A DNA stretch of 38,427 nucleotides, taken from contig WTFW01000137.1 in NCBI GenBank assembly GCA_011523785.1, positions 1-38,427 of the forward strand, in the 5' to 3' direction. A program made the position numbers and the translations under genes. The stretch comes from Chloroflexota bacterium. Lineage in GTDB: Bacteria > Chloroflexota > UBA11872. Below are positions 21,756-36,816 of this stretch, one piece after another. How positions within the stretch are numbered: the first letter of the stretch is position 1; each line of letters starts with the position of its first letter. Below the pieces are notes generated by a model, which saw nothing but the letters and a program-made list of their open reading frames with translations, was not told where the DNA came from and searched no databases.

Positions 21756-23948
21756 TCAGGCCGATGGCGTGAGCAGCGAGTCCGCTTCCTGCTCGGCCGT
21801 GTCCGATGGCGGTACCAGCGGCAGGTCAATGATCATCTCAGTACCCTCGCCTTCCTCGACGTCAACCCTGATGTGCCCGCCGTGCTGGCGCACGATGTCG
21901 CTGCACATGGCAAGGCCGAGCCCGGTGCCCTGACCCGTCGGCTTGGTCGTAAAAAACGGGTTGAAGATCTTTTCCACAACCTCCGGTGGCATGCCGCCGC
22001 CGTTGTCGCGGATGCGGACTTCAATGTGGTCCTCATGCCGCCGTGTGGCAAGCCAAACGATCGGCATGAACGGTTCCTGCCCGTCCTCCGCCTTGGCCGC
22101 TTCGCGGCGCTCGTCGGTCGCGTAGCAGGAATTGGCCACCATGTTCAGGAAGACGCGGCCCAAATCCTGAGACACGACGTTGAGCTCCCCAACGGCCTCG
22201 TCAAAGTCCCGCTCGATACTGAGTTGGAAGTTCTGATCGGTGCCCCGCGCGCTGTGGTAGGCCAACCGGGCGTACTCGTCCACCAGCTGGTTGATGTCGG
22301 TGGACGATCGGTCGCCGGAGCCGCGGCCCATCGACAGCATGTCTTGCACGATCCGGTTGGCGCGATCCCCGTGCGATCGAATGCGCTGCAGGTTGTCGGT
22401 CAGGTCCTGGGAGACCTCCTCGATAATCTCGCGGTCCGCCTCCGGCAGGCTGTCGCCGCTTTCTTCCAAGACCTCCTGGAACTCCTCCAGGAGCTCTTCC
22501 GAGGCCTCGGCGAAGTTCTTCACGAAGTTGAGCGGATTGCGAATCTCGTGGGCCACGCCGGCGGTCAACTCGCCCAGCGCCGCTAGCTTCTCGCGCATCA
22601 CGATCTGATCCTGGGCCTTTTGCAGGTCGCCCAACACGCTCTCCAGCTGCTCGTTCTTGTCCTGCAGTTCCGTCGCCAGTTTTTCGACCAGGTTCAGGCG
22701 CTGAACTTCCAGCGCGTGACGGCGAAAGACCTCCAGGGCCGCGGCCATATCGGCCACCTCGTCGCGGCCGCTCATCTCGACACGCGTCTCCAAATCGCCG
22801 CCGGCCATTTGGAGCATCCAGTCGGACAGCATCTGCAGCCGCCGCAACAGGAACCGGCCAACGAAGAGCCAGGCAATCAGGAGCGCGCCGCCAATGCTGA
22901 TGGCGCCGATGACCAGCAACAGGAAGCGTCCAGTGGCGATCGTGTCGGTCGAACTCTGGGTCGCCTCATCCGCGCTGGCACGGGCCGCGCTCACGAGGCC
23001 GTCGACCTCGGCCAGCAGTTCGACGGCCTGGGCGCGGTTCCCGTCCAGCAGATCCTGCTGGCGTTCCAGCAGCGTCAGCTCCTGTTCAAGCACATCGAAG
23101 CCACTGGGATCGCCCGTGCCAACTTCGAAGAGTCGATCGAACAAGGGGACCAGATCGGCGTGGAATGGGGACGCGGCCAGCCCGTTGAGATTCCGCTCGA
23201 TGCGGCGACTGGAGGCCTCGAACCGCTCGCGCAACGGCTCGATGAGCGCGGGACTGGACAAGGTGAACGCACTGGCCAGCAGCTGAGTCGCGATGTTGAC
23301 GTCCGACTGCAACTCCGCCAGGCGCCGGTAGAGATTGAGTTCGGACTCGGAGAAGTACACCCGGCGCATCGGCGGTTCTTCCTCCAACGTCCGGAAGCCC
23401 GTCATCGTGTAGAACAGCTGGTCGTCGAGAGCGGGGACGATCACACCCTCCAGGCTGCTCCGCAGATCTTCCAGTTCAATGCGGAGGGCCTGCCGCCTCG
23501 CGTTCAACTCGAAGAGATCGAACCGCTCGCGCCTGATGGTGTCGATGTTGGATAGCAGGGTGTCGGCAAAGCGTCGCAGGCGCTGAGTTCGCTCCGGGTC
23601 GGCGCTGCTGCGATTCAGGACCGTAAACAGAACCTCAAGATCCTGGCGCGAACTCTCGATGCTCTGGGCCAGGTCATTCACTTCGGCCACATCGGCGGCC
23701 GCCGCCAGTCGAGGCGCGGCCGCCACCAGTGTGCTGCTGTATTGAGCCACGCCAAAGGCGGCGGCCAATTCCGGCACGCTGCCTTCGTTGACCCGGCTCT
23801 GCGCCTCTCCGACCCGCGTGAACGATGCCAGCCCAACGACGCTGGCGGCCATCGTCAGCGCAACGGCGCCGCCAATGCCGAGATACAACTGCGTGGACAG
23901 CCGATACCGCGCTTCCAGCAGGCGCTTCAATCGGTCCAGCACGCTCAC
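21756..23948 (-). CDS. Membrane sensor histidine kinase with large helical periplasmic domain
   Basis: This 730-aa kinase has one transmembrane helix at about residues 20-46, then about 290 extracytoplasmic residues that look wholly helical, then a second helix at about 340-362. A HAMP linker, a coiled coil and a HisKA dimerisation domain follow, with the phospho-acceptor H467 in AHEIRNPLNF. An ATPase domain (NMVANSCYATDERRE, NGGGMPPEV, FFTTKPTGQGTGLGLAMC) ends the protein. No receiver domain is attached. The sensor region resembles the helical TorS sensor, which works with a periplasmic binding protein. The upstream gene encodes just such a protein and overlaps by GTGA. Likely targets are the two receiver proteins of the same operon. 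Confidence 0.92.
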   Translation of the reverse strand: MSVLDRLKRLLEARYRLSTQLYLGIGGAVALTMAASVVGLASFTRVGEAQSRVNEGSVPELAAAFGVAQYSSTLVAAAPRLAAAADVAEVNDLAQSIESSRQDLEVLFTVLNRSSADPERTQRLRRFADTLLSNIDTIRRERFDLFELNARRQALRIELEDLRSSLEGVIVPALDDQLFYTMTGFRTLEEEPPMRRVYFSESELNLYRRLAELQSDVNIATQLLASAFTLSSPALIEPLRERFEASSRRIERNLNGLAASPFHADLVPLFDRLFEVGTGDPSGFDVLEQELTLLERQQDLLDGNRAQAVELLAEVDGLVSAARASADEATQSSTDTIATGRFLLLVIGAISIGGALLIAWLFVGRFLLRRLQMLSDWMLQMAGGDLETRVEMSGRDEVADMAAALEVFRRHALEVQRLNLVEKLATELQDKNEQLESVLGDLQKAQDQIVMREKLAALGELTAGVAHEIRNPLNFVKNFAEASEELLEEFQEVLEESGDSLPEADREIIEEVSQDLTDNLQRIRSHGDRANRIVQDMLSMGRGSGDRSSTDINQLVDEYARLAYHSARGTDQNFQLSIERDFDEAVGELNVVSQDLGRVFLNMVANSCYATDERREAAKAEDGQEPFMPIVWLATRRHEDHIEVRIRDNGGGMPPEVVEKIFNPFFTTKPTGQGTGLGLAMCSDIVRQHGGHIRVDVEEGEGTEMIIDLPLVPPSDTAEQEADSLLTPSA

Positions 23949-25228
23949 CTGCCCGACAAGCTGCTGACGGAACGGTAGCGACCATCGGCGCCGATCACCG
24001 TCAGGAACACTGCGTCCGATCCTTGGTTGTCCGCGCTCTCAAATCGCAGCTTGAAGCCATCGATCTCCTCCGCACTGCGCAAGCTGTTCAGAAAGCAGTC
24101 ACGGCTCAGGTCGGCTCCGCACCGCTCCAGGCCCAGGATGGTCAGGCGGCCGGCCAGATACCCCTCAAAGGAGACAAAACCCGGCACGGCGTCCGAATCA
24201 AATGCGGCCAGCGCGCGATGGTAGGCCTGCACCACCGGCAGCGATGTGTCCGTGGGAAAGGGCACGACCTGCGTGACGAAAACGCCGGCCCCTTCCGGCC
24301 CAAGTTCCTGGGCCAGCGCGTTGCTGCCAACAAAGGAAATGGTCATGAATACGGGAATGAACCCCAGGTGCCGCGACCACGCCACCAGGGCGGCCACCGG
24401 TTCATAGGCGCCGACCATGATCACGGCTTCCGGCTGACCTTCACGTAAGTCCAGCAGCGCGGTCTTCACGGCCGTGGTGTTGCGCGGATACACGCCAACC
24501 GCGGCCAGCGTCATACCCCGGCGCTCGAGGGCGGCCTGCACGCCGTTATAGCCGGCCCGCCCGTAGGAATCGTCCTGGTACAGCAAGGCGATACGCGTGA
24601 TTCCCAGGTCCTTCGTCAGGCGATCCACCATCTCCTCGGTTTCCTGGTTGTACGAAGCCCGCAGATTGACCACCACGTTGTGGAGATCCTCGCCGCGCAG
24701 GAACCCCGCGCCGGTAAATGGCGCCAGGTACGGCGTATTTGCTTCCACGGCAACCGGCACGGCGGAGCGCGAGGTCGGCGTACCCACGGCGCCGATCAGG
24801 GCAAAGACGTTCTCTTGCTCAATGAGTTGCTTGGTATTCGTCACGGCCGCCTCGGGTTCGTAGGCGTCGTCAAGCGTGGTCAGTTCCAGGCGGCGTCCGT
24901 GCACGCCCCCCGCCTGATTCGCCTCCTCGAACGCGGCTTGGATGCCGAGTCGCATGTTCAGGCCCAACTCGCTGGCCGGACCGCTGAACGCGGCCGACTG
25001 GCCGAACAACACGCGCTCGGCGGAGACGCCGGGCGCGCCCGTGGGCGTCTGGGGGCTCGAGACGGCGACGGGTTCCACCGTGGCTGTGGCCACGGGCGGT
25101 TGGCCGTCTGTGGCTGTAGTAGCACCGCCGGCTGCCAGAACGGCCCACAGCACAATACTGAGGGCGACCAGCCCTCCGAGCCCCAGCACGACCAGCCACG
25201 CTCTGGGCGTCGCGGCGATCTGGTTCAT
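23945..25228 (-). CDS. Branched-chain-amino-acid-type periplasmic binding protein (type I fold)
   Basis: This 427-aa protein has an N-terminal hydrophobic segment (about residues 11-33) without a lipobox cysteine, so it is membrane-anchored or cleaved by signal peptidase I. A Pro/Thr-rich linker follows. The body is a Peripla_BP_6-like domain: FGQSAAFSGPASELG, GIQAAFEEANQAGGVHGRRL, ALIGAVGTPTSR, ALLYQDDSYGRAGYNG and FVSFEGYLAGRL. Such proteins usually bind amino acids or amides for ABC import, but no permease or ATPase gene is near. Its overlap with the histidine kinase (GTGA) and RsbW-like (ATGA) genes points to a sensing role. The ligand is unknown. Confidence 0.9.
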   Translation of the reverse strand: MNQIAATPRAWLVVLGLGGLVALSIVLWAVLAAGGATTATDGQPPVATATVEPVAVSSPQTPTGAPGVSAERVLFGQSAAFSGPASELGLNMRLGIQAAFEEANQAGGVHGRRLELTTLDDAYEPEAAVTNTKQLIEQENVFALIGAVGTPTSRSAVPVAVEANTPYLAPFTGAGFLRGEDLHNVVVNLRASYNQETEEMVDRLTKDLGITRIALLYQDDSYGRAGYNGVQAALERRGMTLAAVGVYPRNTTAVKTALLDLREGQPEAVIMVGAYEPVAALVAWSRHLGFIPVFMTISFVGSNALAQELGPEGAGVFVTQVVPFPTDTSLPVVQAYHRALAAFDSDAVPGFVSFEGYLAGRLTILGLERCGADLSRDCFLNSLRSAEEIDGFKLRFESADNQGSDAVFLTVIGADGRYRSVSSLSGR

Positions 25229-25644
25229 TCCGCCCGGTAAGCGACGAGCGTCAGGTGGTTGCGGCCTTCTTCCCGCCGGTAGGTCAATTCATCCATCAGC
25301 TTCCGCACCAGGAACACGCCCAGGCCGCCGATCGGCCGCTCCTCCATCGGCGCGTTCACGTCGGGAACGGGAGCGTCGGTCAGCGGGTCGAACGGTTTAC
25401 CGTCGTCCACCATCTCGATCGTCAGTGCATCCTCGGTGGAGCTAAATGTGAACGAGATGTCGTGCAGCCCGCCGTCGTGGCCGTGGTTGATGGTGTTAAT
25501 CGCCAACTCTTCCAGCACCAGGTTGACCTTGCCCACCAGGGCCGGCGACCAGTTGTCCTCCTCGCCCAGGTTCTCCACGGCCTCCGTCAGCCGGTTCAGC
25601 TCGTCCAGTCTCGTTTCGATCGTCAGGGTGCGCGTGAGACCCAT
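25225..25644 (-). CDS. RsbW-like serine kinase / anti-sigma factor
   Basis: A 139-aa GHKL-type ATPase of the RsbW/SpoIIAB group. Motifs are LVLEELAINTINHGH (N box), MVDDGKPFDP (G1 box) and IGGLGVFLVRKLMDEL (G2 box). Family members bind a sigma factor or another partner and phosphorylate a STAS antagonist on serine. Three STAS domains lie upstream in the operon and the opposing phosphatase is the adjacent gene. No sigma factor gene is seen, so the controlled partner is unknown. The start overlaps the phosphatase gene stop as TAATG and its end overlaps the binding-protein gene as ATGA. Confidence 0.92.
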   Translation of the reverse strand: MGLTRTLTIETRLDELNRLTEAVENLGEEDNWSPALVGKVNLVLEELAINTINHGHDGGLHDISFTFSSTEDALTIEMVDDGKPFDPLTDAPVPDVNAPMEERPIGGLGVFLVRKLMDELTYRREEGRNHLTLVAYRAE

Positions 25645-26813
25645 TACCCGTCTCCCGTACGGCGAAAGGTCAGGCAGGTAATGTCGTCCGACGCCGGGTT
25701 GTCGCCCACGAACTCGCTCACGGCGTCAAACACAACGTCGTTGGCAGCCTCCGCATCGCTCCCCGGGTCAGCCGCCAGCGCCGTGCGCAGCCGCTCCAGG
25801 CCAAACTGCTCCTCGGTGCTGTCCATGGCTTCGCTGACGCCATCGGTATACAGCACGATGGTGTCGCCCGGCTCCAGGAACACGCTGTTCTGCCGATATT
25901 CCAGGTCGGGCAACAGGCCCAAGGCAATGCCACCCGTCAGCGGAAGGTTCGTTGAACTGCCGTCGGGCTTCACCAGCAGCGGCGGGTCGTGCCCGCCGCT
26001 CGCGTAGACAAACTCACCGGTGTCCGGGTTGTATTCGGCGTAGAGCACCGTCACGAACATCTCGGTTTCGTTGTCTTCAAAAAGCAGGTTGTTGACCTCG
26101 CGCAGCACGTCGCCGGGTCCGCCGGACCCAATCGCGGCGCCTTTGATCAGGGTGCGCGTGGACATCATGAACAGGGCGGCGGGCACTCCCTTGTCCGATA
26201 CATCGGCGACGGTCATGCCGATGCACTCGTTTTCCAGCGACACGACGTCAAAAAAGTCGCCGCCAACGCTGCGCGCCGGTTCCATATTGGCGAAGATCTG
26301 GTAATGCGGGCTCTCTGGAAAATGGGTGGGGAGAATCGACTGCTGCATCTTGCTGGCGACGCTCAACTCGTTCTGCAGGGCCACCAGTTGATCGCGCGAC
26401 GCCAGGGCCTCCCGCCACTCCATCAGATGTTGCAGCGTCCGGTCGATCGTCACCCGCAGGTCGCGAAAATCAATGGGCTTGGTGACGAAATCAAACGCCC
26501 CGCGGTTCATCGCCGTCCTGATGTTCTCCATGTCGCCGTAGGCGGAAACGATGATGGATCGAATGTTGGGGTCGACCTTGGGGATCTGCTGCAGCAGCGT
26601 CAGGCCGTCCATCTCCGGCATGTTGATGTCCGACACCACCATGTCGATATCGTCTTCGGCGTGCAGCCGATCCAGGGCTTGGACGCCGTTGCGGGCAAAG
26701 ACGAACGTGTACTGACCGCGCCGGATATTGCGCCGCATGCGCTGCAGCATCAGCGGTTCCAGGTCCGGCTCGTCATCAACAACCAGGATCTTGTAGGGGG
26801 GCTTGACTACCAC
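25644..26813 (-). CDS. Receiver-PP2C phosphatase (RsbU-like response regulator)
   Basis: The N-terminal receiver (residues about 7-130) has the acidic pocket VVDDE, the phospho-acceptor D62 in VVSDINMPEMDG and K112 in TKPID. A coiled linker (about 130-160) follows. The SpoIIE-type PP2C domain begins with QQSILPT and has metal ligands in GGDFFDV (184-190), VADVSDKG (202-209) and, near the end, YTDGVSEAMD and DDITCL. The protein should dephosphorylate a STAS protein when its receiver is phosphorylated, presumably by the kinase in the operon. The GTG start, preceded by AGGGTG, overlaps the upstream gene by seven bases. Confidence 0.94.
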   Translation of the reverse strand: MVVKPPYKILVVDDEPDLEPLMLQRMRRNIRRGQYTFVFARNGVQALDRLHAEDDIDMVVSDINMPEMDGLTLLQQIPKVDPNIRSIIVSAYGDMENIRTAMNRGAFDFVTKPIDFRDLRVTIDRTLQHLMEWREALASRDQLVALQNELSVASKMQQSILPTHFPESPHYQIFANMEPARSVGGDFFDVVSLENECIGMTVADVSDKGVPAALFMMSTRTLIKGAAIGSGGPGDVLREVNNLLFEDNETEMFVTVLYAEYNPDTGEFVYASGGHDPPLLVKPDGSSTNLPLTGGIALGLLPDLEYRQNSVFLEPGDTIVLYTDGVSEAMDSTEEQFGLERLRTALAADPGSDAEAANDVVFDAVSEFVGDNPASDDITCLTFRRTGDG

Positions 26814-27778
26814 GATTTCACCCTATCGTTCCCAGCAGGCGGATCGGCGCCCACGGGGGCAAGCGGAATCTTGCTTGTGCAAGCGGCCAGCGCTTCGGCT
26901 TGGGTGTCACACACCGGAATGATCTGATCGAATCCGCTGACGTTAAAGACCCGGTGGACTTCTTCGGTGACCGAGCAAATGCCAAGCTCGGCGCCTTGCT
27001 GGCGCAGCGATTTGGCCAGGGCCAGCACGACTCGCAGCCCCGCACTGCTGATGTAGTCGAGCTGGCGGCAATCCAGAATCATCGCCGTTTCGCAGGCTTT
27101 TCTTACAACCGTCAGGGCCGTCTCGAACCGCCGGATGGTCGTGGCGTCCACGCGCCCTTCCACGGCGACCACGACCACCCCGTCGGGAGTCGCACTTAGC
27201 ACGGCAAGCTTGACTTGACCGCCGGAAGACGGCGCGCGTCCTTCCACGTCATCGGCGTACAGGCCGTCGGGTTCCATGTGGATCAAAACGGGAGACTCGA
27301 CCAACGAGTCGGCCGCCGTGGCCGGACGGGACTCCGGCATCCCCTCCGCGGAATCATCGCCTGCCGCCTTATGGCGCATGAGCGCCCGGTGTTCCAGGGC
27401 CCGCTCGATCGTGGCGCGCAAATCCTTGAAGTCGATGGGCTTGGTGACGAAGTCGAACGCCCCGCGGTTCATGGCCGACCGGATGTTGTCGATGTCCCCA
27501 TAGGCCGTAACGATCACTGAGCGTATGTCCGGGTCAACGTCCGGAATCTGCTGCAGCAGGGTCAGCCCGTCCATCTCCGGCATATTGATGTCCGAGAGGA
27601 CAATGTCGATGTCGTTCTCGCGCAGCCGCTCCAGCGCCTCCACGCCGTTGCGGGCGAAGACAAACTCGAACTGACCCTTGCGGACGCTGCGGCGCATCCG
27701 CTGCCGCATCAGGACTTCCAGGTCGGCCTCGTCGTCAACGACCAGGATCTTGGCAGGGGCGTCCAACGCCATGGTCAC
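26807..27778 (-). CDS. Receiver-STAS fusion (response-regulator anti-sigma antagonist)
   Basis: This 323-aa protein has a receiver at about residues 10-130 (D63 in LSDINMPEMDG, TKPID) and a low-complexity linker (about 135-205). A C-terminal STAS domain (about 205-312) contains the potential phosphoserine motif DYISSAGLRVVL. The receiver is roughly three quarters identical by eye to that of the receiver-PP2C protein next door, so the two arose by duplication. The STAS part ends in SGFDQIIPV and TQAEALAA, shared with the two small STAS proteins. This combines two-component and partner-switching inputs in one chain. The start is GTG 27778 or ATG 27772; neither has a strong ribosome binding site. 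Confidence 0.9.
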   Translation of the reverse strand: MTMALDAPAKILVVDDEADLEVLMRQRMRRSVRKGQFEFVFARNGVEALERLRENDIDIVLSDINMPEMDGLTLLQQIPDVDPDIRSVIVTAYGDIDNIRSAMNRGAFDFVTKPIDFKDLRATIERALEHRALMRHKAAGDDSAEGMPESRPATAADSLVESPVLIHMEPDGLYADDVEGRAPSSGGQVKLAVLSATPDGVVVVAVEGRVDATTIRRFETALTVVRKACETAMILDCRQLDYISSAGLRVVLALAKSLRQQGAELGICSVTEEVHRVFNVSGFDQIIPVCDTQAEALAACTSKIPLAPVGADPPAGNDRVKSW

Positions 27779-27839
27779 GCCCAGCGGCTCGCAGAGCGGT
27801 CGCCCGCACCGGGCGTCCTGGCCCGAATATCGGTGGCCG

Positions 27840-28196
27840 CTAGCGCGAACATGCGGCCAGAGCCTCGGCTTGGGAGTCGTGCACGGGAATAATCTGGTCG
27901 AATCCGCTCACCTCCAAGACCTTGCGGAGGGACTCCGGCACTGAGCAAACCGTCAGCATGCCGCCTTTCCGCGCCTGGGACTTCGTGAGTCCCAGCAGAA
28001 CGCGAAGCGCCGCACTGCTGATATACGTAAGGTTCTCGAGATCCAGCACCAGACCCTTCGTACCGGCGTCGGCCACGGTACCCAGCACGCGCTGGAATCT
28101 CGGGGCGGTGGAGCCATCCACCCGGCCCTCGATCGCGACGACCATCACCCCATTTCCGGTGACGTTCACCACGTTCACGTTCACTTGGTCTCTCAA
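27840..28196 (-). CDS. STAS-domain anti-anti-sigma factor (second)
   Basis: A 118-aa single-domain STAS protein of the SpoIIAA/RsbV type. Features are EGRVDGSTAPRFQ in the N-terminal half, the serine motif YISSAALRVLLG in the phosphorylation loop and SGFDQIIPVHDSQAEALAA at the C-terminus. It should be a substrate of the RsbW-like kinase and the PP2C phosphatase of the operon. The start is TTG 28196, or GTG 28184 a few codons in. It lies 61 bp upstream of the receiver-STAS gene and 103 bp downstream of the other STAS gene. Confidence 0.9.
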   Translation of the reverse strand: MRDQVNVNVVNVTGNGVMVVAIEGRVDGSTAPRFQRVLGTVADAGTKGLVLDLENLTYISSAALRVLLGLTKSQARKGGMLTVCSVPESLRKVLEVSGFDQIIPVHDSQAEALAACSR

Positions 28197-28299
28197 TTCC
28201 TACAGACACTTAACAGAACGCTCCCCGCGGCTGTCCTGGAGCGTTTCGCCCGGTCGCTCGCGGATCGGCCACGTCGCCGTCCGCCACGCACGCCGGGGC

Positions 28300-28644
28300 T
28301 CAGCTCTTGCGGGCGGCGAGCGCTTCGGCCTGGGTGGCGTGAATGGGGATGATTTGGTCGAAGCCGCTGACGCTGAAGATTTCGCGGATCGGGTCCGACA
28401 GCGAACAGATAGAAAGCGTGGCTTCCTTGCGCTGCAGGGACTTGGCCGCCAGCAGGATCACGCGCAGCCCCGCGCTGCTGATGTACGTCAGCCGCTCCAT
28501 GTCCAGAATCACCGCCTGGTCGCTGGCCTCGATCACGGCCTCCAGGGCGCTCTGGAAGTCGCGGGCGTTGGTGCCGTCCACTCGGCCATCCGCCGTCACG
28601 ACGATGGCGTTGTCGTTCCACGCCCACTCGGTGCTAACGCTCAT
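28300..28644 (-). CDS. STAS-domain anti-anti-sigma factor (first)
   Basis: A 114-aa STAS protein paralogous to its neighbour: ADGRVDGTNARDFQ, serine motif YISSAGLRVILLA, and SGFDQIIPIHATQAEALAA. The ATG at 28644 is preceded by AAGGAGA at seven bases, which decides the start against a longer in-frame version. It appears to be the first gene of the signalling operon, which runs leftward to the histidine kinase. By family it competes for the RsbW-like partner when unphosphorylated. Confidence 0.92.
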   Translation of the reverse strand: MSVSTEWAWNDNAIVVTADGRVDGTNARDFQSALEAVIEASDQAVILDMERLTYISSAGLRVILLAAKSLQRKEATLSICSLSDPIREIFSVSGFDQIIPIHATQAEALAARKS

Positions 28645-29768: not shown

Positions 29769-30178
29769 TGAGCAACGCGCCAGTCGAGCTGGTCGGCGGC
29801 TTCACTAGCGCCGAGGCGCGATTCCTCCGCGGCCAGTTCGACGACTGCCGGATTGACCTGATCGCCCGCTCGCTGCTCGACCAGCGCACCGCCCTGCTGC
29901 GCTGGCAGCCCGCCGCGGACATGCATCCACACGTTGTCGAAACCGCGTCGCCCCGCGTGACCGACCGTCGCCGCCGCCCGTCCGTCGCCTGGTACGTACT
30001 GGAACACGAACCGGATCTGCGCCTCGTCCCAATTGCCTCCGGCCCCGACCTGCGCGACAGCTACCCGGACCACTTCCCGGCCGATGCCGTGCCGGATCAG
30101 CCGACCGGCAAGGGCTGCTTGCCATTCAGCCGGTGGCTATGGCCCCTGGCAACGGCAGTCGCCCTGGCTTCAATCTGA
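29768..30178 (+). CDS. Hypothetical protein coupled to the Sua5-like gene
   Basis: This 136-aa open frame starts on the last base of the Sua5 stop (TGATG), which suggests translational coupling, and its codons have the high third-position GC of the neighbours. I recognise no family. The middle (RRRRPSVAWYVLEHEPDLRL) looks protein-like, and the C-terminus ends in a short hydrophobic stretch (WLWPLATAVALASI). The last codons lie inside a strong hairpin, which is odd for a conserved C-terminus and leaves some doubt that the whole frame is used. Confidence 0.55.
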   Translation: MSNAPVELVGGFTSAEARFLRGQFDDCRIDLIARSLLDQRTALLRWQPAADMHPHVVETASPRVTDRRRRPSVAWYVLEHEPDLRLVPIASGPDLRDSYPDHFPADAVPDQPTGKGCLPFSRWLWPLATAVALASI

Positions 30179-30192
30179 AGCCAGGGCGACCA
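30160..30192. terminator. Strong hairpin between convergent genes
   Basis: A perfect 15-bp inverted repeat (GTCGCCCTGGCTTCA, loop ATC, TGAAGCCAGGGCGAC) covers the stop of the hypothetical gene and lies 46 bp past the end of the leftward virion-like operon. It has no T-run on either strand. As it sits between convergent transcription units it may stop both, or protect the 3' ends of the mRNAs. Confidence 0.6.
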
Positions 30193-30238: not shown

Positions 30239-30580
30239 CTATGCCGCCAGCCGGCCTTTGATCTGACCGAGCGAGTCCGCAATCGACGCCTGGTAGCGCG
30301 TCATTTCGGTGTGATGCGTCGTCAGGCTGCGGTCAATGCTCTCCAGCAACTGCAGCGCACGCGTTTCCGAGTCGGTGCCGCGGGAGCGGCTGCGCCAGCG
30401 CACCATCTCGTTGCGCACCGCGCGCGCGATATACACGGTCACGGCTGTAATGATGCCGATGGTTTCGGGTTCCAAGGCGTTTGCCTCCTTCGAGTGATTG
30501 ATGAAGCGGCCGGGAGCTGCCTCGGCCGGCGGGTCGAACAGGTTCGGCTCTGGTGAGCCAGGCAGGTCAGTGGCTCCCAT
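30239..30580 (-). CDS. Small one-helix membrane protein, holin position of the virion-like operon
   Basis: Last gene of the leftward virion-like operon. With ATG 30580 it has 113 residues and its start overlaps the tail-fibre gene stop as TAATG. A TTG at 30475, preceded by a perfect AAGGAGG at eight bases, would give 78 residues and is a strong alternative. The conserved-looking part is one hydrophobic helix (IGIITAVTVYIARAV), then a basic stretch, then a charged helix (ALQLLESIDRSL) that could coil. Size, single helix and placement after a tail-fibre gene recall phage holins or similar lysis proteins, but there is no sequence proof. Confidence 0.65.
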   Translation of the reverse strand: MGATDLPGSPEPNLFDPPAEAAPGRFINHSKEANALEPETIGIITAVTVYIARAVRNEMVRWRSRSRGTDSETRALQLLESIDRSLTTHHTEMTRYQASIADSLGQIKGRLAA

Positions 30581-31632
30581 TACACGGCCCCAATTGCCAG
30601 CCAATAGACCAGCCCGGGGTTCGTGTTGCTGAAGTTACGGCCGTCGCCCGTGGCGGCCTGTAGGGTGAAGCCGTTGACGCGCAGGTTGGTGCAGCGTGCA
30701 ATCACACGGCGGCCGCCGATATCCTCGCGCGGCGTGGCCAGGGCCGCGTAGACCGTGCGGAAGGCTGACTCGAATGTCACGTCAAGATCCGACCAGTTCT
30801 GCGAGGTCACGCCCGCCACCGAGGCCACGCCAACCTCCGCCCGCCACTGCCCCCGGTCAGTGTGGTTGGCGGGTGCGCTGTCCTGGAAGTTGGTCAGGCG
30901 CAGGGCCTGGTCCAGCGGACTGGGCGTAAACGCCGGCGCCAGCGTGCCTTCGGCCAGTTGCAGCCCGTCGAACCAGGCCGTGGTGTCGCCCTGCTTCAGC
31001 TTGCAGAGCGCCAGCAGCGCCGGTGCCGCGCTGTCAACGTCAATCGTCGCGGTCAGCCACTCCCAGGCCGAGCCGCCCGAGTGGTAGGCCGAGATGGACG
31101 TGGTCACACCGTCGCCCAGCTCCAGCCGCGCTCGATTGGGAACCGTTGCGTAGACCCAGCCGCCCAGGGTGAACGTGCGCCCCCGGAGGTAGGTCAGCCC
31201 GCCCACGTCATCGGCCAGGCCGCGGCGCAAATCGCAGTCGGCGCCCCGCCGCGTCAGCGACGTCGCGTAGCGTCCGTGCTTGACGACGGAAGTCGCGCGC
31301 GCGACCTGAGCGTCGCGTCCGGACAGCGACCAGCCATCCGGCGCCGCCAATCCACCCGCCGACCACGACTCAAAGCTGGCGTTGGGCAGGTGGTTGTTGA
31401 ACTGCTCCGCATGGAAGCTGTCCGGCGCCAGCTTGGCGGTGGTCACCGCGCCCGCGGCCAGCGCCGCCTCCGTCAGTTGGGGGCCTTCGCCCGCCCGGCC
31501 ACTGTGGTCGTGCCCGGTCGCGGCGTGGAAGCCGGCGTCGATCAGGTCGGCGTTGTTGTTGAACACGTTGATGTCGTATTGCTCGGCGCCCTCCGGCTTC
31601 GTCAGCCGCAGGTTCGCCGTGGTAGTTGCCAT
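30580..31632 (-). CDS. Tail-fibre-like protein with carbohydrate-binding-type domain
   Basis: This 350-aa protein opens with NLRLTKPEGAEQYDINVFNN, a pattern common at the N-terminus of phage tail fibre or baseplate attachment proteins. Next is ATGHDHSGRAGEG, typical of fibre repeats. Residues about 85-235 form a jelly-roll-like carbohydrate-binding segment (LPNASFESWSAGG, GWSLSGRDAQVAR, TFTLGGWVYAT, AWFDGLQLAEG). The last 80 residues (TSQNWSDLDVTFESAF, TNLRVNGFTLQA, VYWLAIGAV) resemble the short H-type lectin-like tip domain of fibres. ATG 31632 is fixed by AGGAGG at eight bases; a longer in-frame version is not supported. It probably binds surface glycans. Confidence 0.8.
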   Translation of the reverse strand: MATTTANLRLTKPEGAEQYDINVFNNNADLIDAGFHAATGHDHSGRAGEGPQLTEAALAAGAVTTAKLAPDSFHAEQFNNHLPNASFESWSAGGLAAPDGWSLSGRDAQVARATSVVKHGRYATSLTRRGADCDLRRGLADDVGGLTYLRGRTFTLGGWVYATVPNRARLELGDGVTTSISAYHSGGSAWEWLTATIDVDSAAPALLALCKLKQGDTTAWFDGLQLAEGTLAPAFTPSPLDQALRLTNFQDSAPANHTDRGQWRAEVGVASVAGVTSQNWSDLDVTFESAFRTVYAALATPREDIGGRRVIARCTNLRVNGFTLQAATGDGRNFSNTNPGLVYWLAIGAV

Positions 31633-31643
31633 ATCGCGGCCTC

Positions 31644-34022
31644 CTAAAGCCTGGCGAGTTGCGTGTGTAAGTAAGCGGCCTGTGTCGCATGCGCGTAGGC
31701 CGCCAGACGGTTGTGCGTGCCCGTGCCGGCGGTTGGCCGGTATTCCGTGGCGGTCACCGGCATCAGCCACTCCAGGTCGCGCCCGGCCTCGCTGCGACGC
31801 CCCTCGGCTTCGGCCCCGCGGACCAGCGCTTCGATGTGCTCGCCGTCCGGGCTGACCAGCACCACCGGTTCGCGCGTGGCGGCCGCGGCGGCAATGGCTT
31901 GCTTGATTGAGCGGCCCGACCGCCGATCGCGGCGCCCGTCGCGCAGTGGAGCCTGGTCCGCGATCCGCGCCACGAACTGGAACACCCGCTTGAAGTCCGC
32001 GCGAATGGCGTAAGCCAGCGAAACGGCGTGGACCACCGGCGTGGACGCGGGGTCGTCACTGTGCAGCGTCAGTCGCAGGTCGATAGCCGTCGCGGCGGCC
32101 TCCGAACCGAACTCAATGCGCTGACCGCTGGCTGCAAACCGTCCCAGTCGCTTGAACGGCCCGCCATCGGCCAGCCGATAGGCCGCATCCACCCAGCTGG
32201 AGGCCATCAGCCTCTCGCCGCTCAGCGTCAGGGCCAGGAAAGCCTTGGGCTGCGCCGCGAACGCCGCGTCGAAGCGCGATAGGTACACCTCCGCGCTGGC
32301 GGCGAAGCGACAGTTGGGATCGTGCAGTGGGTTGGCCGAGCCCCGCGGCAGCACGATCGTGGCCAGCGATCCGCCAGCCCCGGCGTACAACCGCGGATTC
32401 GGACCCGGCCGGTCAGACACCCACATGTGCCGGCAGTCCACTCGCCCAAGCTGCGCGAGCGGATGCCAGGACTGCTGGTCCGGGTTGAACGCCAGCAGCG
32501 CGGTCTGCCCGGTCTCGTCCCGCAGCGCCGCATACAGGAAGTGGGCGTCGCCGGCGCAGGCGGTGATACGGCCCCGGATTGGCGAGTCGTTCTCGCGCAG
32601 ACGTTCAGGGCCGGCGGGCGTTATGTCGCCGGATCGAAAGCGATAGAGCCCCTGCGACAGCGGGAGCCACAGATAGCCGCGCCACACCGCCGCGCCGCGG
32701 CCGCTATACGGACTGGAATGCCATGCGCGCCGGGACCACACGTGCTCCGCCACCGCGCCGCCCGCGCCGCCGGGCCGCAGCGCGTAAAGGCCGTCTTCCT
32801 TCACCACGTAGGCCGTGTCGCCCAGGCTCGCCAGCGCATTGGCGGCTGACGCGCCGTCCCCCACCGGCGCGCCGTCCGTCCAGGTGGAGTCCGCCCCACC
32901 GTCCACCGAAGTCGACAGCATCGGCCCGCCGGTCTCGCTGCTCACCCGCGCCAATTGCGAACCGATTACCAGAAACGCGTCGGCCTTCCGGACTTCGCGT
33001 ACCGCCAGTTCATTGATGCGGGTTGACGAGTCCAGGACCGAAGCAACGGTCAGCCGCAGCCAAAAGGCGTCCACCCCGTTGATGGTCGCCCGCCGCCAGT
33101 CCGCCGGTTCCTCGAACGACACATCGCCGTCGCGGGCCAGCGTCTTGCCGTCCTGCGCCGTGCCGTCGCTCAACTCACTCACGGTCGTCCAGGCCGAGCC
33201 ATTCCAGTATTCGGCCGCCAGTTCGGCCGCGTTGCCGTTCGCGGCGGCGTTCATCTCGATGGCCACCGCCGCGAACGGTGCCTGGCCGCCCACCAGCAGC
33301 CAGGCACCGTCGTTCACCGCGCCCAGCGAGTCCAGGTGCCCGTACGTTCCGGCGTCCCCGTCGCTGACGGCCTCGGTCAGATCGGCGTACGTCTGACCGC
33401 TGTCGCCGGTTCGCAGCACCGCCGTCGGGTTGGCGCGCTGGCCCGCGTGTTGCGTCCAGCTTGTGCCATCGAACGTCCAGAACGGCTCGTCGGCCGCCGA
33501 ACCGCCCACGGCCACGAACGCCGTCGGCCGCTCCGCGCGTCCCGCAAAGACCGCGGCGGACATCGCCGTAACCCCAGGCTCGAACGCCTTGGCCAGGCTC
33601 CAATTCCTGCCGTCCCGCGAGCGGTAGACGGCGGACCCCGCCAGCACGTAGACGACGCCGTCGAGTTCGAAGTGGTCAGAAATCTCTCCCGATGACGTAA
33701 TCGGCGCAATCGAGACTTCCGGCGGCAGGGTGACCTGGTGCGGGATGCGCGTGTCGGCCAGTCCGTGGGCGTAGCTGGTCGATCCGCCGCGCGGCACGAC
33801 CCGCTGGCCATACCCGCCCGAGAGGTCGTCCACCGCCCAGGTCGTCTCGTCTTCGGGCGGGAACTGGGCGTAAGACTGGTCGGTCTGGCTCACGCGCGGC
33901 GCAAAGAAATCCAGCTTGCGCTCGCGCCAGGCCACTGGGCCGTCGGCGCCGGTGCTCAGCATCAGGCCCGTCCCGTTCACCATGCAGTCGTAGGGATAGG
34001 GCGGACGGTTGCCACGTGGCAT
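31644..34022 (-). CDS. Large virion-like propeller protein (tail nozzle or adhesin candidate)
   Basis: This 792-aa protein has no confident family by eye. Residues about 100-580 carry repeated short blades with W/F-containing strands and Asp-box-like motifs (YRSRDGRNWS; STSVDGGADSTWTDG), suggesting a beta-propeller. The C-terminal 200 residues (FKRVFQFVARI, DGRRDRRSGRSIKQAI, EPVVLVSPDGEHIEALV, WLMPVTATEY) look like a phage minor tail protein domain. Its length and its place after an adaptor-like gene recall the propeller nozzle of T7-like podophages (tail tubular protein B, about 790 residues); that is an inference. The ATG follows directly on the stop of the preceding gene, and the tail-fibre gene begins 11 bp after its end. 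Confidence 0.7.
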   Translation of the reverse strand: MPRGNRPPYPYDCMVNGTGLMLSTGADGPVAWRERKLDFFAPRVSQTDQSYAQFPPEDETTWAVDDLSGGYGQRVVPRGGSTSYAHGLADTRIPHQVTLPPEVSIAPITSSGEISDHFELDGVVYVLAGSAVYRSRDGRNWSLAKAFEPGVTAMSAAVFAGRAERPTAFVAVGGSAADEPFWTFDGTSWTQHAGQRANPTAVLRTGDSGQTYADLTEAVSDGDAGTYGHLDSLGAVNDGAWLLVGGQAPFAAVAIEMNAAANGNAAELAAEYWNGSAWTTVSELSDGTAQDGKTLARDGDVSFEEPADWRRATINGVDAFWLRLTVASVLDSSTRINELAVREVRKADAFLVIGSQLARVSSETGGPMLSTSVDGGADSTWTDGAPVGDGASAANALASLGDTAYVVKEDGLYALRPGGAGGAVAEHVWSRRAWHSSPYSGRGAAVWRGYLWLPLSQGLYRFRSGDITPAGPERLRENDSPIRGRITACAGDAHFLYAALRDETGQTALLAFNPDQQSWHPLAQLGRVDCRHMWVSDRPGPNPRLYAGAGGSLATIVLPRGSANPLHDPNCRFAASAEVYLSRFDAAFAAQPKAFLALTLSGERLMASSWVDAAYRLADGGPFKRLGRFAASGQRIEFGSEAAATAIDLRLTLHSDDPASTPVVHAVSLAYAIRADFKRVFQFVARIADQAPLRDGRRDRRSGRSIKQAIAAAAATREPVVLVSPDGEHIEALVRGAEAEGRRSEAGRDLEWLMPVTATEYRPTAGTGTHNRLAAYAHATQAAYLHTQLARL

Positions 34023-35246
34023 TTACCAGCCTCCCCCCAGCATCACCCGCCGGGTAGCGCGCGGGCGGTAGAGACGGGACAGTTGCTGGAATTCCAGCGC
34101 CGCGTCGTGGTGCAGGGCCGCATAGCGCGCCACGTCGCCCGCCGGCGCGTCGCGGTGCAAGTGGCGGTAAACCTCCACCAGCGCGCCGTGCACAACCCAG
34201 TCCGCCGGAGCGTCGGTCACCGCCTCATCGCCGGCCAGCGGGTCGTAGGCCCGCAGCCCTTCGATCAGCAGCGTCTCGCCCAGGCTGGGCGGCGGGTCTG
34301 ATTCCAGCCACAATTCCGGCCCCGCCGGCCCCGGGTTGGCCGTGGTTCGCCACCACGTCACCGCCGACATCACGCGCTGCGGATTGGCTGCCGCTCGCCG
34401 CCAAACCTCCACCACTTGCTGCCGATGCGTGATCCAGGCGGGCAGGGGGAACCGGCGGCGGCCGGCCGCCAGCAGGATCACCTGGTCCCAGCGGGTCGCC
34501 GCCTCCGCCTCCGCGGCGCCCAGGCGGACCTCGATCTCCTCACATCCCTCGGGAATCACGAACGTCAGGCGTACCCGCCGCCAGGCTCGGCCCGTCGCCG
34601 TAACCGCGTCCAGGTCCACGCCGCCGGTCAGGTTGTGAACCGCCAGCCGCGACCTGGACCCGCCGGGCGCCACTGCCGCTTCCAGGGTGTACGGCTGGCC
34701 CGGCAGCACGGCCAGCGCGGTCGAGGCCGCGTACCCGCCCGCCGCCGTTGTGGTCACCTCCAGGCTGGCGGCTCCGCTGGCCGCGTCCGCGCCAGCCTCG
34801 ACCTTCGCCGCGCCGGCATTCCAGGTGCGCCAGGCCCGCGAGTCCGGCCGTTCCATCCCGCCGTCCGCCAGCATGGTCAGTGGCGAAAGCGTCTGGAACC
34901 AACAGCGCGTCAGCGTGGCGCTGATGGCCGTGTCGATCACGTCGGGCGCCACCAGCCGCGACAGCTCATAGGACGCCGCGTCGTCCAGTGCGTGCGGAAA
35001 CGCCCGACTGACGGTAATCGACCCGGCGGCCGGGTCATAAGCCGCCACGCGACGCGTCTCGCCGGCATTGGGACCGCCGAACACGTGAACCCAGCTATCG
35101 GTCCATAGGTCGGCCGAGGCCGTCGAATCCTGGAGTCGTGCCGCGTCCACCAGCGTCACCGTGGACCCGCCCTCGGCCGTGCCCGTCAGGAACGGCGCCA
35201 GTCGCTGGGCCACGCGATGGCGCAGCGCGCGCCGCGTGACGCTCAT
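34023..35246 (-). CDS. Neck/adaptor-like protein with inserted carbohydrate-binding-type domain
   Basis: This 407-aa protein starts with TRRALRHRVAQRLAPF and ends with a helical stretch (WVVHGALVEVYRHLHRD, DAALEFQQLSRLYRP), which resembles phage head-tail adaptor or tail tubular protein A subunits. Between them, residues about 118-260 look like a CBM4/9-type jelly roll (LADGGMERPDSRAWRTWNAG, GQPYTLEAAVAPGG, AWRRVRLTFVIPEGCEEIEV). Such an insertion would project sugar-binding domains from the neck. ATG 35246 has GGAGG at the right spacing and overlaps the preceding gene as ATGA, so I preferred it to an upstream in-frame start. The assignment is from layout and fold impression. Confidence 0.65.
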   Translation of the reverse strand: MSVTRRALRHRVAQRLAPFLTGTAEGGSTVTLVDAARLQDSTASADLWTDSWVHVFGGPNAGETRRVAAYDPAAGSITVSRAFPHALDDAASYELSRLVAPDVIDTAISATLTRCWFQTLSPLTMLADGGMERPDSRAWRTWNAGAAKVEAGADAASGAASLEVTTTAAGGYAASTALAVLPGQPYTLEAAVAPGGSRSRLAVHNLTGGVDLDAVTATGRAWRRVRLTFVIPEGCEEIEVRLGAAEAEAATRWDQVILLAAGRRRFPLPAWITHRQQVVEVWRRAAANPQRVMSAVTWWRTTANPGPAGPELWLESDPPPSLGETLLIEGLRAYDPLAGDEAVTDAPADWVVHGALVEVYRHLHRDAPAGDVARYAALHHDAALEFQQLSRLYRPRATRRVMLGGGW

Positions 35247-35497
35247 GGTCGGGCCTCCGCGCACTCGGTTTCACGCTGGTTCCACGCCGACCGCTGCGAA
35301 TCCAGGGCCTCCAAGTCGGGTGCCCCGTGCTCTCGCAGCCGCGCCGCCTGGCGCTCGCGCATGGCCAGCGCCGTGTCTTGCGCTTCCTGACGGTCGGGCG
35401 TGATCACCAGAATCTGGCGTCCGCCCGCCGCGCCCGGAAAGCGGTGGATCAGGCGCCGCGCCGGGCGACGCCTGATCCAGATGATTGGAGCGTGCAT
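35243..35497 (-). CDS. Small basic protein of the virion-like operon
   Basis: An 84-aa protein of unknown family. The N-terminus is arginine-rich (WIRRRPARRLIHRF). A short beta-like stretch (QILVITPD) is followed by a charged helix (QEAQDTALAMRERQAARLRE). AGGAGG nine bases before the ATG and an ATGA overlap with the following gene show that it is a real, coupled gene. Lying between the capsid-like and adaptor-like genes, it may be a head-decoration, head-completion or nucleic-acid-binding protein; none of these is proven. Confidence 0.6.
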   Translation of the reverse strand: MHAPIIWIRRRPARRLIHRFPGAAGGRQILVITPDRQEAQDTALAMRERQAARLREHGAPDLEALDSQRSAWNQRETECAEARP

Positions 35498-35529
35498 ATG
35501 ACGCTGCCTCCTCCTGGAACCGTCCGGGC

Positions 35530-36384
35530 TTAGCTGGACGGGGTGGACGCGTCGAAGTACATCTCCACGCCCCAGGCGTCCGCGTATTCGCCCAGGCCGT
35601 AGTCCGCCACCACGTTCAGTTCCCAGGCCCGCAGCGAGGCGTCCCGCTGCCGTTCCACCGCCCAGTCCTTGAACATCACCAGCACCAGCGCCTCCTTCGA
35701 GAACACCGCGCCCTTGGCGTCGTCGCTGCTGTCCACCGCCAGGTTTCCGGCCTGGAAGACGTCCACGCCGAACGCGCGCGCCACCCAGTGGTTTTCCAGC
35801 ACCGTCTGCGAGATGCCGGCCGGCACCGGATAGGTGCCCGTGGGCGAAATGTCCGCTGCCAGGTCGTGCGCCTGGTACGGGTGCAACACCGCGTGGAACG
35901 GCTGCGGCGCCGGTTCGTCTGCGCCATGCAGACGCGAAACCGCCGCCCGCAGGTGGCCCATCGAGATGTTCTTGCCGGCCCCGCCCAGCGACGCGCTGAA
36001 GCTGTCCAGCATCCCCAGCAGGTCCGTGTCCAGCTTGCGGGCGATCGCATCGCCCAGCACCCGCCCCGCGGCTCGGGCCATGTCTTCCTTGGCCGTGCGC
36101 AGCGCGCGGTCGGTCAGCACGATCTGCGCGCCCACCTCGGCCGGCGTAATGCTGACCTTGCTGGTGGTCAGCGTCTGCGGGTTCGTCATGTCCACGCCCT
36201 CGGTCAGGGCGCTCGCCGACACCGTGCCGAACTTGGGAATCTCCAGCCGGTCGCCGGCCCCGCGCGGAACCCGATAGGTCCGCACCAGCGGTTCCATCAC
36301 CGTCCGGTGCATCTGCGTGCGACGGGCTTCGGCAATTACCGTATCCACCACGTCGCCGATTGAATCAGTCTTCGTTATCGCCAC
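35530..36384 (-). CDS. Major capsid protein-like (HK97-fold candidate)
   Basis: This 284-aa protein resembles major capsid proteins of tailed phages in the central part: LEIPKFGTVSASALTEGVDM, SKVSITPAEVGAQIVLTDRA, GDAIARKLDTDLLGMLDSFS, then PFHAVLHPYQAHDLAAD and a C-terminal VVADYGLGEYADAWGVEMYF. The order of an N-terminal helix, an extended-loop-like strand pair, the TEVG-like block and a spine helix is typical of the HK97 fold. GTG 36384 preceded by CGGAGG at seven bases decides the start. No protease-cleavable delta domain or scaffold is obvious. It is the first gene of a six-gene leftward operon; encapsulin or a prophage remnant are alternatives to an active virus. Confidence 0.8.
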   Translation of the reverse strand: MAITKTDSIGDVVDTVIAEARRTQMHRTVMEPLVRTYRVPRGAGDRLEIPKFGTVSASALTEGVDMTNPQTLTTSKVSITPAEVGAQIVLTDRALRTAKEDMARAAGRVLGDAIARKLDTDLLGMLDSFSASLGGAGKNISMGHLRAAVSRLHGADEPAPQPFHAVLHPYQAHDLAADISPTGTYPVPAGISQTVLENHWVARAFGVDVFQAGNLAVDSSDDAKGAVFSKEALVLVMFKDWAVERQRDASLRAWELNVVADYGLGEYADAWGVEMYFDASTPSS

Positions 36385-36787
36385 TGCGTTGCCTCCGGAG
36401 CACCCGCGCATGCGGAGCGCTCGGTATGTCGTGAACCAGTGCGACGCCGCTCATGGGCGCCTGCTCGGCAAAGCCCCGCTTCGCCGGCGCTTGCTCTCGC
36501 GGGGCACACCGAGTTGTCTCCCGGCCCTGTCGAGGCGGCGGGATCGCACCCGTCCCGATATCCCATCGGTCGATGCGAGCGGTCCGTCGCCCCTCTGCTC
36601 CGCACAAGCGCACCGGGCGGTGATGACGCCACTCGGATGCCCGAGTTCCCGGCTGCCGACGCGCGGCCTTCGGTTGCCACGCGCCGCTGGCGGGAGTCGG
36701 ATCACCCAACGCGGGCCGCCACGGCCCCGCTTCGGCTGACCGCCGCTCGTCAGGCGAGTTCGATCAGATCCGAAGCGCTACACCGCT

Positions 36788-36816
36788 ATTGTACACGAGA
36801 AGCATACGCCTCGCAA
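36788..36816 (-). promoter_or_regulatory. Candidate sigma-70-type promoter of the virion-like operon
   Basis: On the minus strand TTGCGA (36816-36811) and TACAAT (36793-36788) are separated by exactly 17 bases, matching the -35 and -10 consensus at 4 of 6 and 5 of 6 positions. Transcription would begin near 36781, leaving a leader of about 400 bases before the capsid-like gene. It is supported by motif and spacing only. Confidence 0.4.

What the first reader, a model, noticed from the sequence alone, without database searches (positions are those of the whole stretch)
30239..36384. Compact virion-like operon with capsid and tail parts but no terminase, portal, protease or integrase
Six leftward genes are joined by overlaps or tiny gaps (ATGA, TAAATG, TAATG), most with strong ribosome binding sites. 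They encode a capsid-like protein, a small basic protein, an adaptor-like protein, a propeller protein, a fibre-like protein and a holin-like protein. Both ends are bounded in the window by opposing genes and hairpins or promoters. A set able to build a shell and receptor-binding parts without visible DNA packaging could be a domesticated particle, a gene transfer agent with split loci, or a prophage remnant. Intact frames and ribosome binding sites argue against random decay.
Basis: partly seen in the sequence, partly recalled or inferred. Interest (0 to 1): 0.78.

Follow-up and report, generated by a model that had tools for sequence, protein, structure and literature searches.

The report
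Domesticated short-tailed phage particle, likely GTA

Summary
The six-gene operon is real (MCP, small basic protein, adaptor-like, beta-propeller nozzle-like, fibre-like, holin-like). It is not a shell without packaging. The contig ends about 2 kb past the capsid start; on another contig of the same genome lie portal, small terminase-like and large terminase genes (L072). On long contigs of relatives both modules lie on one strand 8-13 kb apart, separated by cellular genes. The set occurs in 18 of 19 genomes of the family (two genera) and in no other of 121 relatives. It is single-copy for MCP, intact and under purifying selection (dN/dS 0.09-0.34). Main clades match the host tree. The exception, G003, keeps the neighbouring cellular genes but lacks every module. 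I found no integrase or replication genes. Promoters of the separated modules share operator-like palindromes found almost nowhere else in 756 kb. The capsid leader holds a covarying structured RNA without Rfam match, present exactly in the 18 carrier genomes. Best explanation: a domesticated podovirus-like gene transfer agent, new to Chloroflexota as far as I could search. Packaging and transfer are inferred. Nearest known analogue: FpGTA of Faecalibacterium (2026).

The parts
35530..36384 (-). major capsid protein (HK97 fold, podovirus/pelagiphage type), 284 aa, GTG start
   Evidence: Pfam Phage_capsid_4 E=5.7e-10, PHROG 544 E=4e-12; 36% to pelagiphage HTVC026P; family profile matches solved podovirus capsids, P-SCSP1u and T7 gp10A among them; 18/19 family genomes
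35243..35497 (-). g2, small basic protein, 84 aa, unknown role
   Evidence: no family hit; conserved in 17 of 18 carriers' gene calls, median dN/dS 0.32 in genus g1
34023..35246 (-). g3, adaptor-like protein, 407 aa; in genus g1 carries an inserted carbohydrate-binding-module-like domain (about residues 129-266)
   Evidence: insert absent in genus g2; model's insert matches CBM structures, e.g. 8xmz TMt 0.80; the adaptor role of the core is inferred from gene order, no sequence or PDB hit
31644..34022 (-). g4, nozzle-like beta-propeller tail protein, 792 aa
   Evidence: profile hits LME-1 phage portal-tail complex chain 9efk_M E=3.6e-5; Foldseek list includes P22 gp10, Sf6 gp8, Kp9 and LME-1 tail proteins, but the model is poor (pLDDT 51) and many unrelated propellers match too
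30580..31632 (-). g5, fibre-like protein, 350 aa
   Evidence: weak Gp53-like_C 0.024 and CBM_4_9 0.11; N-terminus conserved in both genera, C-terminus replaced in genus g2
30239..30580 (-). g6, holin-like small protein, 113 aa (one weak hydrophobic stretch; role inferred)
   Evidence: no family hit; conserved in genus g1
36385..36787 (-). conserved leader (5' untranslated) of the capsid operon, about 400 nt
   Evidence: aligned in 18 genomes; no Rfam match
36505..36617 (-). structured RNA core of the leader (model R1)
   Evidence: RNAalifold finds the same main stems with 8 covarying pairs; 94.9% of cells paired versus 87.0+-0.9 shuffled and under 50% when slid; exactly one copy in each of 18 carrier genomes, none in 43 others
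36789..36807 (-). promoter/operator-like element GTATGC-n5-GTGTACAA(T)
   Evidence: same element upstream of portal and of the u243/scaffold-like module in g1 genomes
30158..30190 (.). perfect 15-bp hairpin (loop of 3) at the downstream end of the operon
   Evidence: sequence; no U-run, so not a canonical terminator

Best explanation
The operon is the capsid and short-tail module of a domesticated podovirus-like particle, most likely a gene transfer agent, inherited vertically in a family of sponge-associated Chloroflexota. Separate modules in the same genome supply the motor (portal, TerS-like, TerL) and an accessory unit (Xre-type HTH regulator, a zinc-ribbon-like protein, a scaffold-like acidic protein). 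In part of the family a GH-M23-SLT or M23-SLT endolysin with holin-like proteins supplies lysis. Proposed mechanism: a shared operator switches the modules on together in a few cells; the structured leader tunes the capsid operon; MCP assembles a small head on portal and scaffold; TerL fills it with host DNA by headful packaging; adaptor, nozzle and CBM/fibre proteins close the head and bind the glycans of recipient cells; lysis releases the particles. Shown: gene content, conservation, purifying selection, co-diversification at clade level, shared promoters, covarying leader RNA, intact terminase motifs. Inferred: particle formation, random packaging, delivery.
For: MCP in 18/19 family genomes, single copy, 83-100% identity, none in other families. 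TerL in the same 18 genomes. Portal is PHROG 156 in 11/11 sequences tested; TerL is PHROG 2, E=1e-19. TerL ATPase Walker A and nuclease motifs (DPGYAGAY, IDxAGRQHHA, IDRDNHAIKAL) present in nearly all sequences; the Walker A misses are called starts that are too short. Modules interspersed with sulfatase, mandelate racemase and other cellular genes. dN/dS 0.09-0.34 for all modules. GTA and host trees share the main clades; distances correlate, Spearman 0.78-0.93 against DXS and RpoB, permutation p=0.001. Shared operators at separated modules: GTTACnnnnGTAAC only at MCP and portal in genus g2, GTAYKC-n-GWRTAYA at MCP, portal and u243 in g1, 12-mer GCCAGCGATGTC in portal and u243 leaders. Endolysin.
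Against: No particle, packaged DNA or transfer has been observed. Phylogeny within genus g1 agrees only partly with the host tree (G009, G011 and others move; Mantel within g1 weak). No endolysin match was found in G000 or G004. The position of carrier-free G003 is unresolved with two markers, so late gain versus loss cannot be told apart. Genomes are nearly all metagenome-assembled. No ejection proteins were recognised.
Confidence: 0.7

Rival explanations
1. Domesticated particle with another job: a DNA-filled or empty killing or delivery particle (PBSX-like) or other host-serving capsid, not a gene transfer vehicle.
For: Conservation, purifying selection and co-regulation fit any domesticated particle; the CBM insert and fast-changing fibre could aim at competitors or at sponge glycans.
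Against: Terminase and portal are kept with intact motifs and low dN/dS (0.10 and 0.15), so DNA packaging is selected for; no toxin or effector was recognised among the genes examined in the locus.
Confidence: 0.15
2. A temperate or integrated podovirus (or a satellite) that happens to sit at one site in all genomes.
For: MCP, TerL and portal have caudoviricete relatives; an Xre-type HTH gene lies beside one module.
Against: No integrase or replication gene seen between or beside modules; cellular genes lie between modules; modules are rearranged between close species (G013: TerL and MCP about 38 kb apart and inverted; G000: accessory unit moved); no viral contig encodes a close relative (best 41-43%; none for the nozzle-like g4); distances track the host.
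Confidence: 0.1
3. Decaying prophage remnant.
For: Extra terminase copies and fragments exist at other loci in some g1 genomes.
Against: The operon genes and the portal/TerL module are intact across the family with dN/dS far below 1; promoter and leader RNA are conserved with compensatory changes.
Confidence: 0.03

Closest known systems
FpGTA of Faecalibacterium prausnitzii (PMC12946183, 2026)
   Same: Podovirus-like gene set, split into two operons (head plus packaging; tail fibre/receptor-binding plus lysis), near-ubiquitous in its genus, with TerS, TerL, portal, scaffold and MCP.
   Different: FpGTA particles (about 40 nm, about 9 kb DNA) were purified; here nothing is experimental. Different phylum; here modules are interleaved with cellular genes and share operators and a structured leader. 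Sequence relationship not tested.
Brachyspira GTA (BhGTA/VSH-1) (PMC9662315)
   Same: Structural cluster with the single terL outside it, vertical inheritance, weak resemblance to known phages.
   Different: BhGTA has a flexible non-contractile 65-nm tail; a podovirus-like short tail is inferred here.
RcGTA-type GTAs of Alphaproteobacteria
   Same: Vertical inheritance in a bacterial clade, dispersed loci, evidence of selection to keep the genes.
   Different: Siphovirus-like tail (from general knowledge) against podovirus-like tail here; unrelated host lineage.
Pelagiphages of the HTVC026P/HTVC111P type and phage DSL-LC06
   Same: Closest isolated-phage capsids (about 35%, full length); their TerL also matches weakly (E about 1e-13 to 1e-15).
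   Different: They have long-tail genes (tape measure and others) and a compact own genome.
LME-1, P22, Sf6 tail nozzle proteins
   Same: Propeller protein of a short tail; g4 profile matches 9efk_M at E=3.6e-5 over about 100 residues.
   Different: Only partial sequence match; g4 model is of low confidence.

Membership tests
Gene transfer agent (Kogay et al. 2022, PMC9662315) | uses caudoviricete-derived proteins | tested here: met
   MCP, portal, TerL, nozzle-like g4 and endolysin match caudoviricete families
Gene transfer agent (Kogay et al. 2022, PMC9662315) | encapsidates mostly random host DNA | not testable with these tools
   needs purified particles
Gene transfer agent (Kogay et al. 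2022, PMC9662315) | fully endogenized, often at several loci | tested here: met
   modules separated by cellular genes on a complete chromosome (G002) and on long contigs
Gene transfer agent (Kogay et al. 2022, PMC9662315) | own genome cannot be fully packaged | tested here: inconclusive
   modules span 17.5 kb (G004) to 22.8 kb (G010) with cellular genes between; head size unknown
Gene transfer agent (Kogay et al. 2022, PMC9662315) | vertically inherited, co-diversifies with host | tested here: met
   met at clade level; within genus g1 the agreement is only partial
Gene transfer agent (Kogay et al. 2022, PMC9662315) | packaged DNA is delivered to other cells | not testable with these tools
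   needs a transfer assay
Functional temperate prophage | integrase and replication/repressor region with phage genes contiguous | tested here: not met
   no integrase or replication gene among the gene calls of the locus in the genomes examined; cellular genes between modules
Encapsulin or empty shell | capsid-fold protein with cargo enzyme, no portal or terminase | tested here: not met
   portal and terminase conserved in the same genomes under a shared promoter type
Podovirus-type short-tailed particle | portal, adaptor, propeller nozzle, no tail tube or tape measure | tested here: inconclusive
   portal and nozzle-like hit positive; adaptor by position only; no tail-tube or tape-measure gene recognised in the locus

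The most novel reading that the evidence does not exclude
An independently domesticated, podovirus-type gene transfer agent in the phylum Chloroflexota, whose separated capsid, packaging and accessory modules are tied into one regulon by shared operators, with a new structured leader RNA on the capsid operon and possibly complementary leader sequences (GCCAGCGATGTC in the portal leader, GACATCGCTGGC in the accessory leader) coordinating expression at the RNA level.
Probability: 0.45. Interest if true: 0.87.

Novelty: new variant of a known kind. Interest (0 to 1): 0.74.

Why it matters
Few GTAs are known with their genes, mostly in Alphaproteobacteria, plus Brachyspira and, since 2026, a podovirus-like one in Faecalibacterium. 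A conserved one across a family of sponge symbionts would add a phylum, would show that short-tailed phages too are repeatedly domesticated, and would offer a gene-exchange route within dense sponge microbiomes. The dispersed but co-regulated layout, with a genome (G003) that lacks every module while keeping the cellular genes between them, makes the question of why GTAs are kept directly testable by comparative genomics.

Tried and rejected
Pfam portal PF04860 and terminase PF03237 searches gave almost nothing in the family and would have supported 'no packaging genes'; reading the upstream DNA of the complete genome G002 showed a divergent TerL, which reversed the conclusion. Capsid-only compartment: rejected because TerL and portal are conserved. 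G011's second set of tail and lysis genes on contig C24 is read as contamination from genus g2 (G011 is 8% contaminated; genes 88% like g2). LeuRS as sole host marker: conflicts with DXS on G003 and g2, so RpoB was added; G003 has no RpoB in its assembly. AlphaFold of g4 was poor (pLDDT 51), so its Foldseek hits are only supporting. Portal profile against PDB: no real hit. Nozzle profile in IMG/VR: none. Not tested: sequence relation to FpGTA (its proteins were not available here).

Full report
Observation. The six leftward genes are present with the junctions described. GC and third-position GC of the six genes (GC3 0.80-0.89) equal those of neighbouring host genes (0.80-0.84), so the block is well ameliorated. 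The capsid gene is significant by Pfam and PHROGs. Its nearest isolated-phage relatives are pelagiphages at about 35% over full length, and a family profile matches solved capsids of podoviruses such as P-SCSP1u and, weakly, T7 gp10A.

The missing packaging genes. Standard family searches for portal and terminase found only two isolated hits in 19 family genomes. Reading upstream of the capsid in the complete chromosome G002 (OY282448) showed a divergent TerL with Walker A and RNase-H motifs. A search with that protein found TerL in 18 of 19 family genomes. In the window's own genome it is on contig C209 together with a portal and a TerS-like gene. The portal is PHROG 156 in all 11 sequences tested, best E=9e-6; TerL is PHROG 2, E=1.4e-19. 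Viral contigs that encode the nearest TerL relatives (34-43%) mostly encode the nearest portal relatives as well.

Where they lie. In G010 one 35-kb contig carries everything on one strand: portal, TerS, TerL, a 462-aa gene, (HTH on the other strand), u243, scaffold-like protein, cellular genes including a sulfatase, the BNR gene, then MCP-g2-g3-g4-g5-g6. G004 and G002 are similar, and genus g2 as well, with sulfatase again between TerL and MCP. In G000 contig C209 ends in the sulfatase, and this window begins again at the BNR gene, so the window stops roughly 9 kb (plus an unknown gap) short of TerL. The intervening genes are cellular by Pfam: sulfatase, mandelate racemase, a 3-dmu-9_3-mt (glyoxalase-like) protein, HicB-like antitoxin, FGE; the downstream neighbour is Sua5/YrdC.

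Conservation and selection. MCP is single copy in 18 of 19 family genomes at 83-100% identity and absent from 102 other relatives in the same order, class and phylum (again by profile in 41 genomes of the class). The operon is syntenic in all carriers whose contig covers it. Nei-Gojobori dN/dS medians within genus g1: MCP 0.086, TerL 0.10, portal 0.15, g5 0.17, g4 0.19, HTH 0.20, u243 0.21, g3 0.21, g6 0.27, g2 0.32, scaffold-like 0.34; host DXS 0.055, LeuRS 0.17. A five-protein GTA tree and a DXS+LeuRS host tree share the genus g2 clade, the g1 core, the separate G002, and the pairs G000/G010 and G001/G007; some placements inside g1 differ. Distances correlate with DXS and RpoB (Spearman 0.78-0.93, permutation p=0.001). 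This fits vertical inheritance with some recombination among close species.

The carrier-free genome. G003 (2.1 Mb, 76% complete, GC about 55% here) has a 75-kb contig with the order MtnA, FGE, GH, mandelate racemase, sulfatase, Sua5 partner, Sua5, HAD, YvcK, DXS, and lacks portal/TerL, MCP-g6 and u243/scaffold-like/HTH. Its placement is unresolved, so this is either loss of all modules or the state before gain.

One regulon. Upstream of the MCP lies a palindromic promoter element and a leader of about 400 nt. In 756 kb of fetched sequence GTTACnnnnGTAAC occurs only upstream of MCP and portal in genus g2. The g1 element GTAYKC-n4-7-GWRTAYA lies upstream of MCP, portal and u243; of the remaining hits, one lies upstream of the displaced TerL of G006, one at the empty former u243 site of G000 (L202:5058), and three are opposite-strand matches overlapping the MCP operator in genus g2. 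The 12-mer GCCAGCGATGTC occurs in portal leaders and, in reverse orientation, in u243 leaders. The orphan terminase loci L073, L076, L077 and L080 show none of these.

Leader RNA. RNAalifold on 18 sequences returns stems with 8 pairs that change on both sides. Against shuffles 94.9% of cells are paired versus 87.0+-0.9 (0 of 500 shuffles as high), and slid versions fall below 50%. These sequences are related, so the shuffle count is not a probability. The covariance model hits once in each of the 18 carrier genomes, always just upstream of the MCP, and in none of 43 others. No Rfam match.

The tail. g4 (792 aa) matches chain M of the LME-1 phage portal-tail complex by profile over about 100 residues (E=3.6e-5), and Foldseek lists several phage tail proteins (P22 gp10, Sf6 gp8, Kp9, LME-1) among many propellers, on a poor model. 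g3 has an adaptor-like position and, in g1 only, an inserted CBM-like domain. No tape measure or tail tube gene was recognised. Hence a podovirus-like particle is the reading, with moderate confidence.

Lysis. An M23+SLT endolysin and holin-like proteins follow the fibre gene in genus g2 and G002. In g1 a fused 652-aa protein (M23+SLT by Pfam, with an N-terminal GH-like part by similarity) lies at another locus in most genomes, but no match was found in G000 or G004.

Comparison. By the published definition of GTAs (PMC9662315) the sequence-based features are met (phage-derived proteins, endogenized at separate loci, co-diversification at clade level), one is inconclusive (packaging limit) and the two experimental ones are untested. 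The nearest known system is FpGTA (PMC12946183), described there as the first podovirus-like GTA-like element. My paper searches found no report of a GTA in Chloroflexota or in sponge-associated Chloroflexota, within an open-access library only. I therefore call it a strong GTA candidate and a new variant, not a proven GTA.

Noticed in passing
window 36385-36787 (-), core 36505-36617: Structured, covarying leader RNA of the capsid operon without Rfam match, strictly co-occurring with the GTA modules.
   Followed up: yes
window 21756-28644 (-): By sequence reading, a signalling island (histidine kinase, binding protein, RsbW-like, SpoIIE-like phosphatase with receiver, three STAS proteins) lies between Sua5 and the HAD gene next to the operon. 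In carrier-free G003 Sua5 and HAD are adjacent and the island is absent from the 40 kb read. A predicted partner-switching system affects RcGTA production in Rhodobacter capsulatus (PMC3999984, title), so this is a candidate regulator; not tested.
   Followed up: partly
L073:441-1905, L076:10161-11628, L080:10133-11446, L077:17767-19234: Second TerS-like/TerL pair (about 64% to the main TerL; no separate TerS called in L080) among cellular genes in at least 7 g1 genomes (four loci read), without portal or capsid and without the shared operator.
   Followed up: partly
L174 (G011), L175 (G006), L173 (G008): TerL carries an N-terminal HTH-like extension (484 aa in G011 and G006) and other genes lie between TerS and TerL, in G011 a Type ISP-like restriction-modification gene.
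   Followed up: partly
L202:5058-5118 and L072:5212-7345 (G000): The HTH/u243/scaffold-like unit has moved in G000 (now beside MtnA); its old promoter and 12-mer remain at the original site.
   Followed up: partly
window 34023-35246: A CBM-like domain is inserted into the adaptor-like protein in genus g1 only, and the fibre C-terminus is replaced between genera: the likely recognition parts change while the head is nearly invariant.
   Followed up: partly
L072:13827, L072:6710 and equivalents: Portal and u243 leaders contain perfectly complementary 12-mers (GCCAGCGATGTC / GACATCGCTGGC): shared operator in two orientations or RNA-RNA pairing.
   Followed up: no
L203:8981-10147 (G003): A tyrosine integrase (PF00589) with restriction-like and helicase-like genes nearby in the carrier-free genome, an unrelated integrative element.
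   Followed up: no
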